DNA from: Lachnospiraceae bacterium
GTDB taxonomy: Bacteria > Bacillota > Clostridia > Lachnospirales > Lachnospiraceae
DNA length: 33,021 bases
Reading direction: 5' to 3'
Assembly (NCBI GenBank): GCA_017441825.1
Contig: JAFRVD010000090.1
Location: 1 to 33,021 of the forward strand
Positions 27,127 through 33,021 of the stretch are shown here, in pieces (positions within the stretch are counted from its first letter, which is position 1; every line of letters begins with the position of its first letter). Position numbers and translations under genes: made by a program. A model generated the notes under the pieces. That model ran no database searches. It had not been told where the DNA came from and saw only the letters and a list, made by a program, of their open reading frames with translations.

Positions 27127-28344
27127 ATGGCAGAAAGAGACGAGATACGGCTGGGTGTGATCGGTGTCGGAAATATGGGATCCGGGCATCTGAAATATGT
27201 GGCGGACGGACTCTGTCCATCTGTCCGGATCACCGCGGTATGTGACGTGCGTGAAGAGCGATTGGAAATAGCGAAAAAGCTGCAGCCCCGGGCAGTCCCC
27301 TTTACGGATGCTGTTCAGCTGATGGACAGCGGGCTCGCGGAAGCAGTCCTGATCGCGGCGCCGCACTATCTGCACCCGGTCTACGCTAAAGAAGCCTTCG
27401 CCCGCGGTCTGCACGTGCTTACGGAAAAGCCGGCAGGGGTGACAGTTCCTGCAGTCCGGGAAATGAATGAAGCGGCCCGGGCTTCCGGGAAGAAATTCGC
27501 CATCATGTTCAATCAGCGAACGAATCCGCTGTTTATTAAGGCTCATGATATCGTGCAGAACGGCCTGCTGGGTGAGCCCAAGCGTTTCGTCTGGATCATT
27601 ACCAACTGGTACCGGACCCAGGCCTATTATGATTCCGGCTCCTGGAGGGCAAGCTGGAGCGGAGAAGGCGGCGGGGTGCTCCTGAATCAGGCGCCACACA
27701 ACCTCGATATCTGGCAATGGATATTCGGTGTGCCGAACCGGGTCCATGCATCGGTGGACTTCGGGAAATATCATCACATCAGCGTAGACGATGACGCGAC
27801 CATCATTGGTGAATATGATAATGGTGCCAGAGCCGCCTTCATCACGACTACCGGCGAATGTCCAGGTACAAACCGGCTGGAGATCTCTGGAGATCTGGGC
27901 AAACTGGTGCTGGAAAACGGCACTTTGAAGTGGTGGAAGCTCACCCGGCCGGAACGGGAGATCTGCTTTACCGAAAAAGTCGGCGCTTATCAGGCAGAGC
28001 TTCAATATGAAGAGTTCACCGCGGATGAGCCCGACGGACACCCGATCCTTCTGGAGGATTTCGCCCGGGCGATCCTGGAGGACAGGGAGCCCTGCGTCCC
28101 GGGTTATGAGGGGATCAAGGCGCTTTCCATCAGTAACGCCGCTTATTTATCCGCGTGGACCAGCCGGACCGTGACGCCGGGTACCGAGGAAGACTTGTTT
28201 GAAGAGCTCCTGGAGGAGCATCGGAGGGCAGAACTGGCGCGTGCTGCTGCGGATCCCGCGAAGGCTGAAGCGGCAGGTGCTGTAAAGGATAAGATCCCGG
28301 AAGAGATCAATGAATTAAAAAAGCGCTGGCAGGTCCGCTGGTAA
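27127..28344 (+). CDS. Gfo/Idh/MocA family NAD(P)-dependent oxidoreductase
   Basis: 405 residues. The N-terminal Rossmann fold has GVIGVGNMGSGHL (GxGxxG), and EKPAGVT carries the family lysine; the second domain contains GGGVLLNQAPHNLDIWQW, which holds the His/Asp typical of sugar or inositol dehydrogenases. ATG 27127 is preceded by GGGAG at about 7 bases; earlier in-frame ATGs are inside the end of the pseudogene and have no ribosome site. The last 60 residues are a charged helix that extends past the usual domain. It may oxidise a sugar or cyclitol freed by the neighbouring glycosidases; substrate unknown. Confidence 0.9.
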   Translation: MAERDEIRLGVIGVGNMGSGHLKYVADGLCPSVRITAVCDVREERLEIAKKLQPRAVPFTDAVQLMDSGLAEAVLIAAPHYLHPVYAKEAFARGLHVLTEKPAGVTVPAVREMNEAARASGKKFAIMFNQRTNPLFIKAHDIVQNGLLGEPKRFVWIITNWYRTQAYYDSGSWRASWSGEGGGVLLNQAPHNLDIWQWIFGVPNRVHASVDFGKYHHISVDDDATIIGEYDNGARAAFITTTGECPGTNRLEISGDLGKLVLENGTLKWWKLTRPEREICFTEKVGAYQAELQYEEFTADEPDGHPILLEDFARAILEDREPCVPGYEGIKALSISNAAYLSAWTSRTVTPGTEEDLFEELLEEHRRAELARAAADPAKAEAAGAVKDKIPEEINELKKRWQVRW

Positions 28345-28446
28345 CAGTCGGTATCGGTAAAGAAAATGCGCAAGGATACATAGGTATGACAGGCGGATGA
28401 ACCTGCGCACCCCGGTTTATGAATCCAATACATAACCATATTGCAT

Positions 28447-28475
28447 GAGGACCGGCATGTGCCGGTCCTCTTTCT
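28447..28475 (+). terminator. Rho-independent terminator after the dehydrogenase
   Basis: GAGGACCGGC (28447-28456), loop ATGT, GCCGGTCCTC (28461-28470), followed by TTTCTGTT. Confidence 0.75.
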
Positions 28476-28560
28476 GTTCCTATCTGTATGAGAGGATTTT
28501 TAAAATCTCCAATCCCGCCCGCATAAATACTACACTTTGTACCTCTTCACTTCATATTCA

Positions 28561-30084
28561 TTATTTCAGATTCAGGCGAAACGTCGGTGCAACATCCTTA
28601 TAAATGTCGATCAGCTCGTCGTCGTGATGGTTGACGCAGCGGCATTCCTTATCGATGATCATGGTCCAGTTATCGTCCGCATTTACCTTCTTCCACTCGG
28701 GAAGGTATTCACAGTTCGGATCCCCGGTCTTCACATAATTCAGGACCATCGTGCTTAAGGTACTTGCATACTTCTGGCCGTTCTCAGCATCATTTAGGAC
28801 CAGGACCTTATCCTCGTTCATAAAGATATAGCCGACCTCACCGCCGTGCCAGATCGGGATCCTTCCGTTTTCCGGAACCGTATATGCAGCCAGGAAAAGA
28901 TAGACATTTTCACAGCCTGCGGCTACGTGCGTCTTCGCGGACTGCATCGCACCGATCCTGCAGCGGGAATCCAGCCATGCAAGGTCGATCAGATCATGAT
29001 CCGGATAGGCTTCCTTAAAGAGCTTCATGAGGTCATCGGCGCACTCACCAAAGCGTTTTCTGAAATACTCCGCCTTGTCTTCTTCGGTCATAGCTGCCTT
29101 TTCCTCTTCCGTCGGCACATTGACCGGGAATTCGCCGAATACAGAACCATATATGATGGGCTTATCTTTTGAGAAGGGCTGAAGAGATGTCAGCGCCGGG
29201 AAACCGGGGAAGAAATCGTTCTGGACCGGAGAGAACACCAGCGGATTCGCGACCTTCTTGCAGGCGTTCACCAGTTCCTGGTAAGGGATATCATATATTT
29301 TTTCGATATTCTCCTTTGTTATGCCCAGCTCATCCATCATCGCTTTTGCAGTCTTAATGCTGTTTTCTCTGTTGTCAGCAGGAGAGCCGGTACGCCCGCG
29401 GGCGCCGCTCAGGCAGATACCGCGCTGGAAATAAGGCACAGCTTCCTCTATCTGATACAGGCACTGAACTTTTCCGCCGCCGCCAGAATGACCGCAGATC
29501 GTGACGTTTTCCGGGTCTCCGCCAAAAGCAGCAATGTTCTCGTGGATCCACTTCATGGCTGCAACCAGGTCCCATATACCTGCATTGGCGGAATTTTTGA
29601 ATTCCTCTCCGTATTCTTCAAGATTCAGATAGCCCACCACATTCAGTCTGTGATTAATGGAAACAAAAAGAACGTCTCCGTAATGAGCCATATTGAAGCC
29701 GTCGAAGGAGATCTCTTCAAACGCATTGCCGCCAAAGAATCCGCCGCCGTGGATCCATACAAATACTGGCTTCTTCTCACCTTCTTCAGTCTTCGGAGCC
29801 CAGATATTCAGATTTTGGCAGTCTTCACTCTGCTTTTCGAGCATATGAAGTCCTCTGTAGTAGAAGAACGGATTTACTTCCATCGCCTGCATGGCAACCG
29901 GTCCGTGCTGGTATGCATTTTTGATGCCTTCCCAGGGTTCGATCTCTTCAGGCAGATGAAAACGTTTGGCATGCGCGTACTGAACACCCATGAAAATATT
30001 CACGTCACCGTAAGTAACACCGCGGAGCAGACCCTGTTTTGTCTGTACGACCGGTCTCTTGTCTTCAAAAACGAATTTATTCAT
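28561..30084 (-). CDS. Type B carboxylesterase/lipase family protein
   Basis: 507 residues, typical for the family. The oxyanion-hole motif is IHGGGFFGG (111-119); the nucleophile elbow is ICGHSGGGG with Ser200 (usually GESAG, here GHSGG); likely acid Glu318 in GSVFGEF and His413 in IWHGGE complete the triad. No signal peptide, so it hydrolyses small carboxyl esters in the cytoplasm; an acetyl or feruloyl oligosaccharide role is possible but not shown. AAAGGAGG lies directly before ATG 30084. It reads toward the dehydrogenase and is the last gene with the GC-rich composition. Confidence 0.9.
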   Translation of the reverse strand: MNKFVFEDKRPVVQTKQGLLRGVTYGDVNIFMGVQYAHAKRFHLPEEIEPWEGIKNAYQHGPVAMQAMEVNPFFYYRGLHMLEKQSEDCQNLNIWAPKTEEGEKKPVFVWIHGGGFFGGNAFEEISFDGFNMAHYGDVLFVSINHRLNVVGYLNLEEYGEEFKNSANAGIWDLVAAMKWIHENIAAFGGDPENVTICGHSGGGGKVQCLYQIEEAVPYFQRGICLSGARGRTGSPADNRENSIKTAKAMMDELGITKENIEKIYDIPYQELVNACKKVANPLVFSPVQNDFFPGFPALTSLQPFSKDKPIIYGSVFGEFPVNVPTEEEKAAMTEEDKAEYFRKRFGECADDLMKLFKEAYPDHDLIDLAWLDSRCRIGAMQSAKTHVAAGCENVYLFLAAYTVPENGRIPIWHGGEVGYIFMNEDKVLVLNDAENGQKYASTLSTMVLNYVKTGDPNCEYLPEWKKVNADDNWTMIIDKECRCVNHHDDELIDIYKDVAPTFRLNLK

Positions 30085-30542
30085 TCATATCCTCCTTTAC
30101 AAAACTTCTGCTGAACTGCAAACGATACAGATCACTGTCACCTATAACAGCGTTTTCATATTCTTTGACGTCATTATATCTGAAGCTTTCCGAATATGCT
30201 ATTAATAATATGGCATTGTATGACGATTTTCTATTCCGGAAGAATACTATTCTTCTTTTTCCTGCAATGGAATTGAATGGACGATCCTTTCCTAAATGAC
30301 ATTGAATAATGCCGACGTGCTGATATCGGGTGCAGTTAGAATAAACGGTGTGACCTGGTCGGGCTCGGCTTTATTCTTTCCGACCGGGGAAAATGAAACA
30401 GATCTCTCATTAGAAAATCCACTCGTTTTTATTCGTATTTTTTGATTTTTAATCCTAATGCAAGCCGATTTTTGTAGATTACATTATATTTTTATGATAG
30501 AATTGTTCAACAAAACCTCAGGATAGTGATATCTTTGAACAA
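30085..30542. other. 458-base intergenic region at the composition boundary
   Basis: No convincing gene. The first part holds the carboxylesterase leader and control region; from about 30300 the sequence becomes strongly AT-rich. All three forward frames were read for an N-terminal Cas12a start (a YSLSKTLRFE-like motif) and for a CRISPR repeat, and neither was found. An open stretch in the Cas12a frame starts after TAG at 30498-30500. Confidence 0.6.
30173..30178 (-). promoter_or_regulatory. Possible -10 element for the carboxylesterase
   Basis: Consensus TATAAT on the minus strand at 30173-30178, without a good -35. Next to it is the 8-bp palindrome TGACGTCA (30166-30173), possibly an operator, possibly chance. 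Confidence 0.35.
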
Positions 30543-31262
30543 TTGTTTGAAAAACAGATGGTCCGCAATTTTATTCTGGATGGCGCAGAAGAAGATGTGA
30601 AAGAAAGCATTGCACGTTTTTCGGAATTCACTACTTATTTTGTGAATTTTCATCAGAATAGAAGGAATATGTACTCGCCTGAAGCCCAGGCAACCGCGAT
30701 TTCTAACCGATGTGTTAATGAAAATCTACCTAGGTTCCTGGACAATGCACGTAATTACGCTGTTATTTCCGGGAAACTGGAAAAGGAACTGGAAATGCTG
30801 AATGCTGATATGTCAGGGTTTAGTGATTTTACGGTGTCTGACCGGTTTTCTTTGGATTATTTTGCGTATGTCCTTCCTCAATCCGGGATCGATGATTACA
30901 ACAGGATTCTTGGTGGTTATAGCACAGAAGATGGGACGAAAATCAAGGGGCTGAACGAATATATTAATCTGTATAATCAGACTGCAGAAAGAAATGATCG
31001 GATCCCTTTGTTGAAGGTGCTATATAAACAGATATTGAGTGATAGAGATACGGTGTCCTTTATTCCGGAATCTTTTGGCAGTGATCAGGAACTCCTTGAT
31101 GCTTTATACGCATACCTAAAAGATAAGGATTCAGCCAAAACAGCAGATATTGCAGTGGCGATTGGCTTAGGTATTACCAGAACGAAAGAGCTAATTTATG
31201 ATATGCCAGATGTCGAAGCATTGGGAGGAAATCGGAACAGAACATATCGTTTAAAACAATAA
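30543..31262 (+). CDS. Cas12a (Cpf1) REC-lobe fragment fused to a winged-helix-like tail; probable remnant
   Basis: 239 residues if started at TTG 30543 (ATG at 30558 is the other choice); neither has a clear ribosome site, and the frame is open from 30501 with Cas12a-like DIFEQLFEK continuing upstream of the start. Residues 1-191 follow the REC1 region of Cas12a: FTTYF (29-33), FHQNRRNMYS (36-45), NENLPRFLDN (59-68), SGIDDYNRILGGY (114-126), KIKGLNEYINLYNQ (133-146) and LYKQILSDR (160-168). This matches roughly residues 115-305 of the Lachnospiraceae enzyme as I recall it, so about 110 N-terminal residues and all of REC2, PI, WED, RuvC and Nuc are missing. Residues 192-239 (TADIAVAIG, TRTKELI, GGNRNRTYRLK) look like the wHTH end of ATP-binding/AlbA_2-type regulators. 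No nuclease activity is possible. Confidence 0.8.
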   Translation: MFEKQMVRNFILDGAEEDVKESIARFSEFTTYFVNFHQNRRNMYSPEAQATAISNRCVNENLPRFLDNARNYAVISGKLEKELEMLNADMSGFSDFTVSDRFSLDYFAYVLPQSGIDDYNRILGGYSTEDGTKIKGLNEYINLYNQTAERNDRIPLLKVLYKQILSDRDTVSFIPESFGSDQELLDALYAYLKDKDSAKTADIAVAIGLGITRTKELIYDMPDVEALGGNRNRTYRLKQ

Positions 31263-31291
31263 ACCACTATTTGTGAGAAAGGGTAAATCAA

Positions 31292-31660
31292 ATGTTGTTT
31301 AACTCGAAAGAAAAGAAAATAAAGAAATACCTCGTGAACCGAACAGAAGATCCAACAGCTTTTGACAGCTTACTTATGGATTATGTGGATGGAAGCTTCA
31401 GATCATATTTTGAAGAATTGGGCATGACCAGGATCGAGCTGCATATAGATTGGAGTGAAGAATATAAGTGCATTGAATTGCAGGGTCGTTACAAATGTAA
31501 TTATGTTGATATTCAAGTTCAGGAATCAGAGCAAAATGCAGAGTTTGGAATAGCTGTCGATCCTGATGAACCGGACATAGAGGAAGATCATGAGCTTGAA
31601 TCAAAAGAATTTTTCTATTCATTTTGCAGAACTGCAATAATGAATGCAAAGAATGAATGA
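31292..31660 (+). CDS. Hypothetical protein, possibly immunity-type
   Basis: 122 residues, not recognised. ATG 31292 has AAAGGG at a good distance. The protein is acidic, with a Lys-rich start, a helix (FDSLLMDYVDGSFRSYFEEL), two beta strands (RIELHIDW, CIELQGRYKCNYVDIQV) and an acidic C-terminal helix. No signal peptide or membrane helix. The small size, AT-rich codons and neighbours resemble the single-domain immunity or orphan genes of toxin/immunity islands, but no family match can be claimed. Confidence 0.6.
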   Translation: MLFNSKEKKIKKYLVNRTEDPTAFDSLLMDYVDGSFRSYFEELGMTRIELHIDWSEEYKCIELQGRYKCNYVDIQVQESEQNAEFGIAVDPDEPDIEEDHELESKEFFYSFCRTAIMNAKNE

Positions 31661-31748
31661 AGAATGATGCGATAACCAGTAATATGATCAAAAGAAATGA
31701 AATATAGTGATGATTATTACATAAATGGATGATCTATGTGATTGAACC

Positions 31749-32129
31749 ATGGACAAAAATGAATTTAAGGAATTTTGTAATAAAGAATTCGCGAAAAGAG
31801 GATTTAAAAGTGTAAAAAGCATGTATTACCTGGCAGGCAAGGATCTTCTATGCGGAATCCAACTTCAGAAATCCAATTTTGGTGCTGTGTATTACGTTAA
31901 TTACTACTTTTTTCTCGGAAACTTCAGCGATATAAGAGTATATCCATCGCATTACGAAAGTGATATAGATCAAAGATTTTTGGTAATGTCAAAGACTCAA
32001 ACAGTTCATAGGAAGCACTTTGTTACTGCTCAAATCGAGTTTGAAGAATATACCGAGGAAGAATTACAGCCTTATTTTGATAAAGAGTTTGAGGAGAGAA
32101 TCCTGCCTCCAGTTTATAAGGGAAAATGA
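31749..32129 (+). CDS. DUF4304-like hypothetical protein
   Basis: 126 residues. The pattern of a helix (FKEFCNKEFAKRGF), the strand pair YYLAGKDLLCGIQLQKSNFGAVYYVNYYFFLG and a later helix EEELQPYFDKEF recalls DUF4304, a small cytoplasmic family often encoded near polymorphic toxin immunity genes. ATG 31749 has only a weak ribosome site. The call rests on the IQLQKS...YYVNYYFFLG block and is tentative. Confidence 0.6.
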   Translation: MDKNEFKEFCNKEFAKRGFKSVKSMYYLAGKDLLCGIQLQKSNFGAVYYVNYYFFLGNFSDIRVYPSHYESDIDQRFLVMSKTQTVHRKHFVTAQIEFEEYTEEELQPYFDKEFEERILPPVYKGK

Positions 32130-32162
32130 TATATACTTGATCATCTGGAAAGGTTGTATTTT

Positions 32163-32266
32163 GTGTATTTGAATAAAGAAGAAGTAATCAAAAAACTGCA
32201 GTCGTAATTAATCTAAATGATATGTGGGCAGATGAAATCAGGGAAGAAGTCGAACAAATATTATAA
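32163..32266 (+). pseudogene. Short frame-broken gene remnant
   Basis: GTG 32163, after GGAAAGG, opens MYLNKEEVIKKLQS and stops at 32207. The other frame, overlapping from about 32201, continues VVINLNDMWADEIREEVEQIL and stops at 32266. Together they read as one short helical protein broken by a single-base shift. Origin unknown. Confidence 0.35.
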
Positions 32267-32314
32267 TCAGTAAAGGGATGCAATGATAGTCGGAAAGTCT
32301 CGAGAGGCATAGGA

Positions 32315-32779
32315 ATGTACGGAATTGTTCTAAATGAAAAACATCCGACCTATCCTGTGGATGTTTTTATGTGTATTGAGAAAGAAGTTAAGGCATTAAA
32401 TTGGCTTATTTCAAATGTCGAGTGCTATGGTAATGACAATTATCATTTTCCATTCGAAGATAGTGATAAGGTGCTTATCAGTGGACAAGAATTATTTGAT
32501 TTGCTTCAGGATCACGCCAGAATCCAGTTCGTATGGGGATTGTTTCAAGGATATACCTCAAGTGTTGACCCATTTGAAATAATGAGTAAACCGGAAATTG
32601 ATATCCAATCATTAGATTTATTTACAGCGAAAACCATTCGTCATATTGATCCCGATTCAGTTTTGGAAATAGTAGCATTTGACAGTTCTGAAACATATAT
32701 TCTGACAGATAGTTTTGCTGTAATAAACAAGCTCGCCTGCAAATACAAAAAGGCGAATATATTGGATGGAAGGAATTAA
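32315..32779 (+). CDS. Hypothetical protein, DUF2691-like
   Basis: 154 residues. ATG 32315 follows AGAGG and ATAGGA. The order of elements (an N-terminal strand MYGIVLNEK, an F/LNWLISNVE segment, a helical FDLLQDHARIQFVWGLFQGY, and the C-terminal VLEIVAFDSSETYILTD followed by a helix) resembles DUF2691, a Firmicute family of unknown function. Soluble, acidic. It lies 3 bases before the HAD gene, suggesting a shared transcript. Confidence 0.55.
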   Translation: MYGIVLNEKHPTYPVDVFMCIEKEVKALNWLISNVECYGNDNYHFPFEDSDKVLISGQELFDLLQDHARIQFVWGLFQGYTSSVDPFEIMSKPEIDIQSLDLFTAKTIRHIDPDSVLEIVAFDSSETYILTDSFAVINKLACKYKKANILDGRN

Positions 32780-32782
32780 CAG

Positions 32783-33021
32783 ATGATCGTATCTTTTGAT
32801 CTGGACGACACTTTATTTGTTTCGCCCTCCAGGTTCAAAACCGAAGAAGAGTTAGGCTTTCCCTGGAATAAAATATATAAGGAAAGACTGAGATATGGCA
32901 CCAAAGCGCTGATCGAAAAGCTGCATAATCATGGGATACAGGTATGGATATATACTACTTCATTTAGATCTGAAAGATATATCCGAAGGCTTTTCAGGCA
33001 TTATGGCATAAAACTTGACCA
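32783..33021 (+). CDS. HAD-superfamily hydrolase, N-terminal part (continues beyond window)
   Basis: 79 complete codons before the window ends. ATG 32783 is preceded by AAGGAA. The start MIVSFDLDDTLF holds the HAD motif I DxDxT with the nucleophile and proton-donor aspartates, and IQVWIYTTSFRSERYI carries motif II (Thr/Ser). HAD enzymes are mostly phosphatases. Short HAD proteins of this type appear beside immunity-type genes in Firmicutes, but the partner is not known. Confidence 0.85.
   Translation, partial: MIVSFDLDDTLFVSPSRFKTEEELGFPWNKIYKERLRYGTKALIEKLHNHGIQVWIYTTSFRSERYIRRLFRHYGIKLD

What the first reader, a model, noticed from the sequence alone, without database searches (positions are those of the whole stretch)
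30501..31262. A nuclease-free Cas12a REC-lobe piece fused in frame to a winged-helix-like tail
About 190 codons read as a collinear, uninterrupted segment of Cas12a REC1 with its most conserved blocks (FHQNRRNMYS, NENLPRFLDN, KIKGLNEYINLYNQ, LYKQILSDR), then switch without a stop to about 48 codons resembling the DNA-binding tail of an ATP-binding/AlbA_2-type regulator. No cas1, cas2, cas4, RuvC or repeat array is in view. The simplest reading is a recombination scar. But the frame is still open across both parts, so it could be a repurposed guide-RNA- or DNA-binding protein, or a regulator of a complete type V system elsewhere in the genome.
Basis: partly seen in the sequence, partly recalled or inferred. 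Interest (0 to 1): 0.9.

Follow-up and report, generated by a model that had tools for sequence, protein, structure and literature searches.

The report
Orphan Cas12a fragment with foreign tail
A bacterial genome carries a small open piece of the CRISPR enzyme Cas12a joined in frame to the DNA-binding-like end of another protein; it is most likely a recent leftover of broken genes, though a small repurposed protein is not excluded.

Summary
A 253-codon frame (30501-31262) holds a collinear REC1 segment of Cas12a (PF18501, E 1.5e-52; Cas12a profile positions 114-328 of 1288), then passes in frame, at about 31104-31120, into the C-terminal winged-helix-like tail of SLFN_AlbA_2/HATPase_c_4 proteins (68 bits over 51 residues). 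The rest of Cas12a is absent locally. The 82%-complete genome gave no other cas12a, no cas1, no AlbA_2 gene and no match to one Cas12a-repeat pattern. The frame lies in a 35-39% GC segment; the rest of the contig is 49-61%. The fusion was found nowhere else: 80 loci from 84,980 species genomes, 1,932 overlapping genome-searches, and phage, plasmid and viral collections. All other clear REC1 matches lie in long Cas12a frames. The piece is well preserved (43 of 44 near-invariant positions, no stop); if neutral, it has drifted less than about 3% per site. So it is either a young scar or under selection. A weak start signal, no relatives and no type V system favour a young scar (0.62). A repurposed protein remains possible (about 0.27), with published analogues in type I systems.

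The parts
30501..31262 (+). Chimeric open frame, 253 codons stop to stop; usual in-frame start candidates TTG 30543 (239 aa) and ATG 30558 (234 aa)
30525..31118 (+). Cas12a REC1 segment plus a short stretch beyond the Pfam REC1 end (TIGR04330 positions 114-328; PF18501 positions 65-250)
31104..31120 (+). Junction zone where the two homologies overlap; falls in one predicted helix (model residues 181-194)
   Evidence: helix
31104..31256 (+). C-terminal winged-helix-like tail of SLFN_AlbA_2/HATPase_c_4-type proteins, matched to the end of the tail profile
   Evidence: weak sequence support for a winged helix
30501..30544 (.). Inverted repeat AATTGTTCAA / TTGAACAATT at the 5' edge of the frame; not significant (at least one 10-nt repeat of this kind in 63 of 300 random sequences; two or more, as observed in the segment, in 24 of 300)
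30085..33021 (.). AT-rich segment between the esterase start and the contig end (kilobase bins 0.35-0.39 GC); of the 30 kilobase bins to its left, 26 are 0.54-0.61 and 4 are 0.49-0.53
28561..30084 (-). Host-side flank: carboxylesterase-family gene (PF00135, E 2.5e-74) with relatives across the genus

Best explanation
A young chimeric gene scar. A cas12a gene of the Ruminococcus bromii/Clostridiales type and an SLFN_AlbA_2-type gene, probably neighbours in an AT-rich defence island of another bacterium, were joined in frame by a deletion that removed more than 900 codons of Cas12a and most of the AlbA_2 protein. A second break removed about the first 115 codons of Cas12a together with its start. 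The remnant came into this genome on an AT-rich segment. It has not yet collected stops because it is recent, and it probably makes little or no protein. Shown: the two homologies, the in-frame joint, the missing ends, the deviating composition, and that the fusion was not found elsewhere in what was searched. Inferred: the order of events, the donor island, the transfer, and lack of function.
For: Profiles of Cas12a's first 140 residues, of residues 320-480 and of residues 900-1250 find nothing convincing in 28000-33021 (best 4.8 bits, E 0.01, lying inside the REC1 piece itself), and tblastn with 10 Cas12a proteins finds only the REC1 piece below E 0.05. No usual start before TTG 30543; the starts pair weakly with the anti-Shine-Dalgarno sequence (TTG 30543 -4.9, ATG 30558 -1.8 kcal/mol; 20 window frames range from -1.6 to -12.2). 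No sigma-70-type match upstream on the + strand (the scan found fewer sites than shuffles do, so it says little). No match in the 14 other genus members (only 4 genomes of that search are at least 90% complete and at most 5% contaminated). Clear REC1 matches elsewhere all lie in long frames. No relative in viral contigs or phages; in plasmids one Butyrivibrio Cas12a. No AlbA_2, cas1 or second cas12a in the genome. Preservation fits a scar with under about 3% neutral drift per site. The genus genome with the closest esterase has a TetR-family gene and a Lon-type protease gene beside it instead.
Against: The REC1 part keeps 43 of 44 near-invariant positions with no stop, the tail keeps nearly all of its conserved pattern, and the joint is in frame. 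Neither part has a match elsewhere in the genus, so the fusion may be older than its arrival here. Codon-position GC of the REC1 part resembles the three complete genes that follow (not the HAD-like gene cut by the contig end) and differs from the flat pattern of 30085-30497. Five of the 20 window frames have start signals weaker than TTG 30543.
Confidence: 0.62

Rival explanations
1. A repurposed protein of a mobile element that interferes with type V-A immunity in recipient cells: the REC1 fragment acts as a dominant-negative piece, binding guide or target nucleic acid or Cas12a itself. The tail may or may not add DNA binding.
For: Strong conservation of REC1 and tail despite a long branch (0.91 against 0.23-0.49 for its four clade mates). 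AlphaFold gives a confident core over model residues 61-160 (ten-residue means 90-98). Precedent: AcrIB4 is 38% identical to the Cas8b C-terminal domain and AcrIB3 mimics Cas5 (review PMC13131331, passages seen).
Against: No relative of the fusion anywhere searched; no phage or plasmid relatives; no target system found in this genome; weak start signal. Seven of the 83 other rows have longer end branches, so the long branch is not special.
Confidence: 0.2
2. A domesticated nucleic-acid-binding regulator unrelated to CRISPR: REC1 serves as a helical binding or dimerisation scaffold and the tail as DNA-binding unit, regulating the neighbouring AT-rich genes.
For: Short gap to the next gene at 31292, which has a good ribosome-binding site (-9.3); coding-like codon-position GC. 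The tail profile reaches the C-terminus of 3lmm (E 0.026) and several small winged-helix chains, only weakly.
Against: No conservation of the arrangement in any genome searched; no confident structure for the tail; the candidate operator palindrome is not significant. The only strong hit, 8vd6 at 1.1e-10, sums five repeats each of E 4-5 and is no support.
Confidence: 0.07
3. An assembly artefact: the contig is chimeric, either between the high-GC part and the AT-rich part or at the joint itself.
For: The window is a whole contig of a draft assembly in 94 contigs, 81.6% complete; GC falls near 30000 and the contig ends 3 kb later.
Against: The two parts of the frame share their GC content (0.397 and 0.392), and the joint is in frame within one helix; an artefact inside the frame would have to hit that by chance. 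This does not speak against a chimera near 30000.
Confidence: 0.09

Closest known systems
Cas12a (type V-A effector), REC1 domain
   Same: Collinear homology over profile positions 114-328; groups with R. bromii and Clostridiales Cas12a, support 96/91; keeps 43 of 44 near-invariant positions
   Different: No N-terminus, no region after REC1, no C-terminal part found nearby; no typical repeat or cas1 found in the genome
SLFN_AlbA_2 / HATPase_c_4 proteins (regulator role recalled)
   Same: C-terminal about 51 residues, 38-51% identical, matched to the profile end
   Different: No AlbA_2 or HATPase_c_4 domain in the frame and no basic repeat linker
Cas-homologous anti-CRISPRs AcrIB3 and AcrIB4 (review PMC13131331, passages seen; the original paper was not held)
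   Same: A Cas-like piece working outside its system
   Different: Those act on type I-B systems and were tested; here no activity, phage context or target system is shown
AcrIIA15, inhibitor plus DNA-binding repressor in one chain (PMC10901769, abstract and outline seen)
   Same: Possible two-part logic: CRISPR-directed part plus DNA-binding part
   Different: No sequence relation tested or claimed; there the DNA-binding part is N-terminal

Membership tests
Cas12a | REC1 domain | tested here: met
   PF18501 E 1.5e-52, positions 65-250 of 250; the first 64 positions are missing
Cas12a | Full-length profile match above the curated cut-off (300 bits) | tested here: not met
   178.2 bits, positions 114-328 of 1288
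Cas12a | RuvC nuclease and the remaining lobes | tested here: not met
   Profiles of residues 1-140, 320-480 and 900-1250 and tblastn with 10 Cas12a proteins find nothing convincing beyond REC1 in 28000-33021
Cas12a | CRISPR array and adaptation genes | tested here: not met
   No match to one exact repeat pattern and no cas1 in an 81.6%-complete genome; no Rfam match in the window
SLFN_AlbA_2/HATPase_c_4 protein | AlbA_2 domain | tested here: not met
   Absent from the frame and not found in the genome
SLFN_AlbA_2/HATPase_c_4 protein | C-terminal winged-helix-like tail | tested here: met
   68.3 bits over 51 residues by sequence; the fold itself was not confirmed
Anti-CRISPR (Cas-homologous kind) | Inhibition of a CRISPR effector | not testable with these tools
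   needs an interference assay
Anti-CRISPR (Cas-homologous kind) | Mobile-element or phage location | tested here: inconclusive
   AT-rich segment of deviating composition but no phage or plasmid relatives

The most novel reading that the evidence does not exclude
A mobile-element protein built from a fragment of a type V effector, with both activities in one chain: Cas12a REC1 as dominant-negative inhibitor and the winged-helix tail as its own repressor. This strict form is part of the first rival.
Probability: 0.12. Interest if true: 0.85.

Novelty: new member of a known kind. Interest (0 to 1): 0.38.

Why it matters
If it is a scar, it records a lost type V-A gene and shows how deletions can make in-frame chimeras of defence-type genes. 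If the frame is used, it would carry the Cas-fragment logic known from type I systems over to Cas12a, and would show what an isolated REC1 piece can bind.

Tried and rejected
Looked for missing Cas12a parts around the frame with region profiles and tblastn: none convincing. Read the inverted repeat at 30501/30535 as an operator: not significant. Looked for a Cas12a-type repeat in the genome and in the window with 3 mismatches (19 matches against 15.5 expected): nothing. Stand-alone REC1 elsewhere: in 391, 398 and 397 genomes (overlapping samples) the matches besides this frame and long Cas12a frames were two weak ones below the cut-off (L132, 365-aa frame; L140, 2398-aa frame), not followed. 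A match with six stops (L148) lies antisense to a 397-aa frame that reads like an AI-2E-type transporter (from reading only) and was set aside as chance. G077 (23% identity, 601-aa frame) is weak and was not followed. Structure of the tail: no confident model in either job. Foldseek lists Cas12a chains in the 50 rows shown, but with rmsd 10-15, so only the core is supported. In print: no Cas12a fragment fused to a winged helix was seen in the rows listed by searches (15 of 43 papers; 20 of 28; 12 of 259; 10 of 17; 2 of 2); the library is partial.

Full report
What is there. The window is a whole contig (G000:C69) of an assembly of 2.6 Mb in 94 contigs, 81.6% complete. The family is probably Lachnospiraceae: the Cas12a of G193, same family, has the same match figures as that of a record titled Lachnospiraceae (L005 and L097). 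This is an inference, and titles disagree: G188 of the same family has the figures of a record titled Bacteroidales (L004 and L053). The frame 30501-31262 has 253 codons and no stop. Its first about 200 residues are Cas12a REC1: PF18501 at 1.5e-52 and TIGR04330 positions 114-328 of 1288; the 15 PADLOC models matched are all Cas12a. Its last 51 residues match the C-terminal tail of SLFN_AlbA_2/HATPase_c_4 proteins at 68.3 bits; 4 of 4 long tail-bearing proteins tested carry both domains. The two homologies overlap at frame residues 202-214; the joint is most likely at 202-206, inside a predicted helix. The Cas12a side runs past the end of the Pfam REC1 match (frame residue 178).

Surroundings. 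Of the 30 kilobase bins left of 30000, 26 have GC 0.54-0.61 and 4 have 0.49-0.53; the three bins to the right have 0.35-0.39. The REC1 part is 0.397, the tail 0.392, the following genes 0.344-0.384 and the non-coding stretch upstream 0.361. Downstream lie a 122-aa and a 154-aa frame without a usable family match in Pfam, NCBIfam, PADLOC or PHROGs, a DUF4304 protein, and a HAD-like start cut by the contig end. The flank at 28561-30084 is a carboxylesterase-family gene. The genus genome with the closest esterase (G075, 70% identical) has a TetR-family gene and a Lon-type protease gene beside it; only the esterase stretch aligns by DNA.

Is the fusion found elsewhere? Genus: 1 of 15, itself. Family: 26 of 397 genomes match, namely itself, 7 long Cas12a frames, 17 tail matches and one weak match. 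Order: 13 of 334, namely itself, 4 long Cas12a frames, 7 tails and one chance match. REC1 family: 2 of 391, 4 of 398 and 9 of 397; besides this frame and two weak matches, all lie in frames of 1117-1280 aa. These samples overlap; they add to 1,932 genome-searches. In genome contigs (84,980 species; candidates found by exact peptides) 80 of 81 relatives were kept. Together with the 7 family loci, all 87 Cas12a matches lie in frames of 491 aa or more, several cut by the end of the stretch held; the shortest not so cut are 602 and 615 aa (L081, L090). Records very near the window's own genome may be left out of that collection. Viral contigs and phages gave none; plasmids gave one Butyrivibrio Cas12a.

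Dead or alive? In a leave-one-out test on 84 REC1 rows the fragment keeps 43 of 44 positions conserved at 90% (rank 47 from the lowest), 55 of 61 at 80% (rank 16) and 62 of 78 at 70% (rank 12); its profile score is 237 bits against a median of 280, rank 12 from the lowest. So it is at the divergent end of the family but not decayed at the core. In the tree it groups with four Bacillota Cas12a (96/91), R. bromii as sister (95/69). Its branch is 0.91 against 0.23-0.49 for those four; the median end branch is 0.28 and seven other rows have longer ones (bootstrap not settled). Random mutation of the frame keeps all 43 positions and makes no stop with probability 0.11 at 2% per site, 0.03 at 3% and 0.003 at 5%. 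The truncation is therefore recent or has been under selection. The simulation cannot separate these, ignores indels, and the frame was noticed because it is open, which favours intact cases. Start signals are weak, but 5 of 20 window frames (starts not curated) are weaker. No + strand sigma-70-type match lies upstream, in a scan that found 7 sites against 11.5 in shuffles.

System context. The genome has no second cas12a match at E<=10, no cas1, no match to the repeat pattern and no AlbA_2. With 18% of the genome missing, these absences are suggestive only. AlphaFold with 79 REC1 relatives gives ten-residue means of pLDDT 90-98 over residues 61-160, 57-84 over the first 50 and 42-73 after 190. 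Foldseek finds Cas12a chains, but the whole fragment superposes poorly, rmsd 10-15.

Verdict. The simplest account that fits is a young scar carrying pieces of two defence-type genes. Function is not excluded; the closest published logic is that of Cas-homologous anti-CRISPRs (AcrIB3, AcrIB4) and of inhibitor-repressor chains (AcrIIA15), as listed under Closest known systems. Nothing measured here shows activity.

Noticed in passing
window 28561-30084; G000 contigs C36, C85, C28 and others: The carboxylesterase beside the frame belongs to a large set of relatives: 22 matches in this genome and up to 33 in genus members.
   Followed up: no
L010-L012, L014-L016, L018, L019, L023: Many tail-bearing proteins carry a repeated KKQAIKTSDKKQAIKT-like linker before the tail, and some tails lie in short frames (66 aa in L013, 89 aa in L023), which could mean repeat-length (phase) variation or decay.
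   Followed up: no
L081, L090: Two Cas12a matches lie in frames of only 602 and 615 aa not cut by a sequence end, so those genes may be split or broken.
   Followed up: no
window 31292-33021: Small AT-rich genes in a row before the contig end, one with DUF4304 and two without a usable family match.
   Followed up: partly
L132 (G918), L140 (G351): Weak REC1-profile matches below the cut-off in a 365-aa and a 2398-aa frame.
   Followed up: no
L010:187-1680: The AlbA_2-type protein also matches a PADLOC pAgo model at 1.9e-9 over residues 36-350, unexplained.
   Followed up: no
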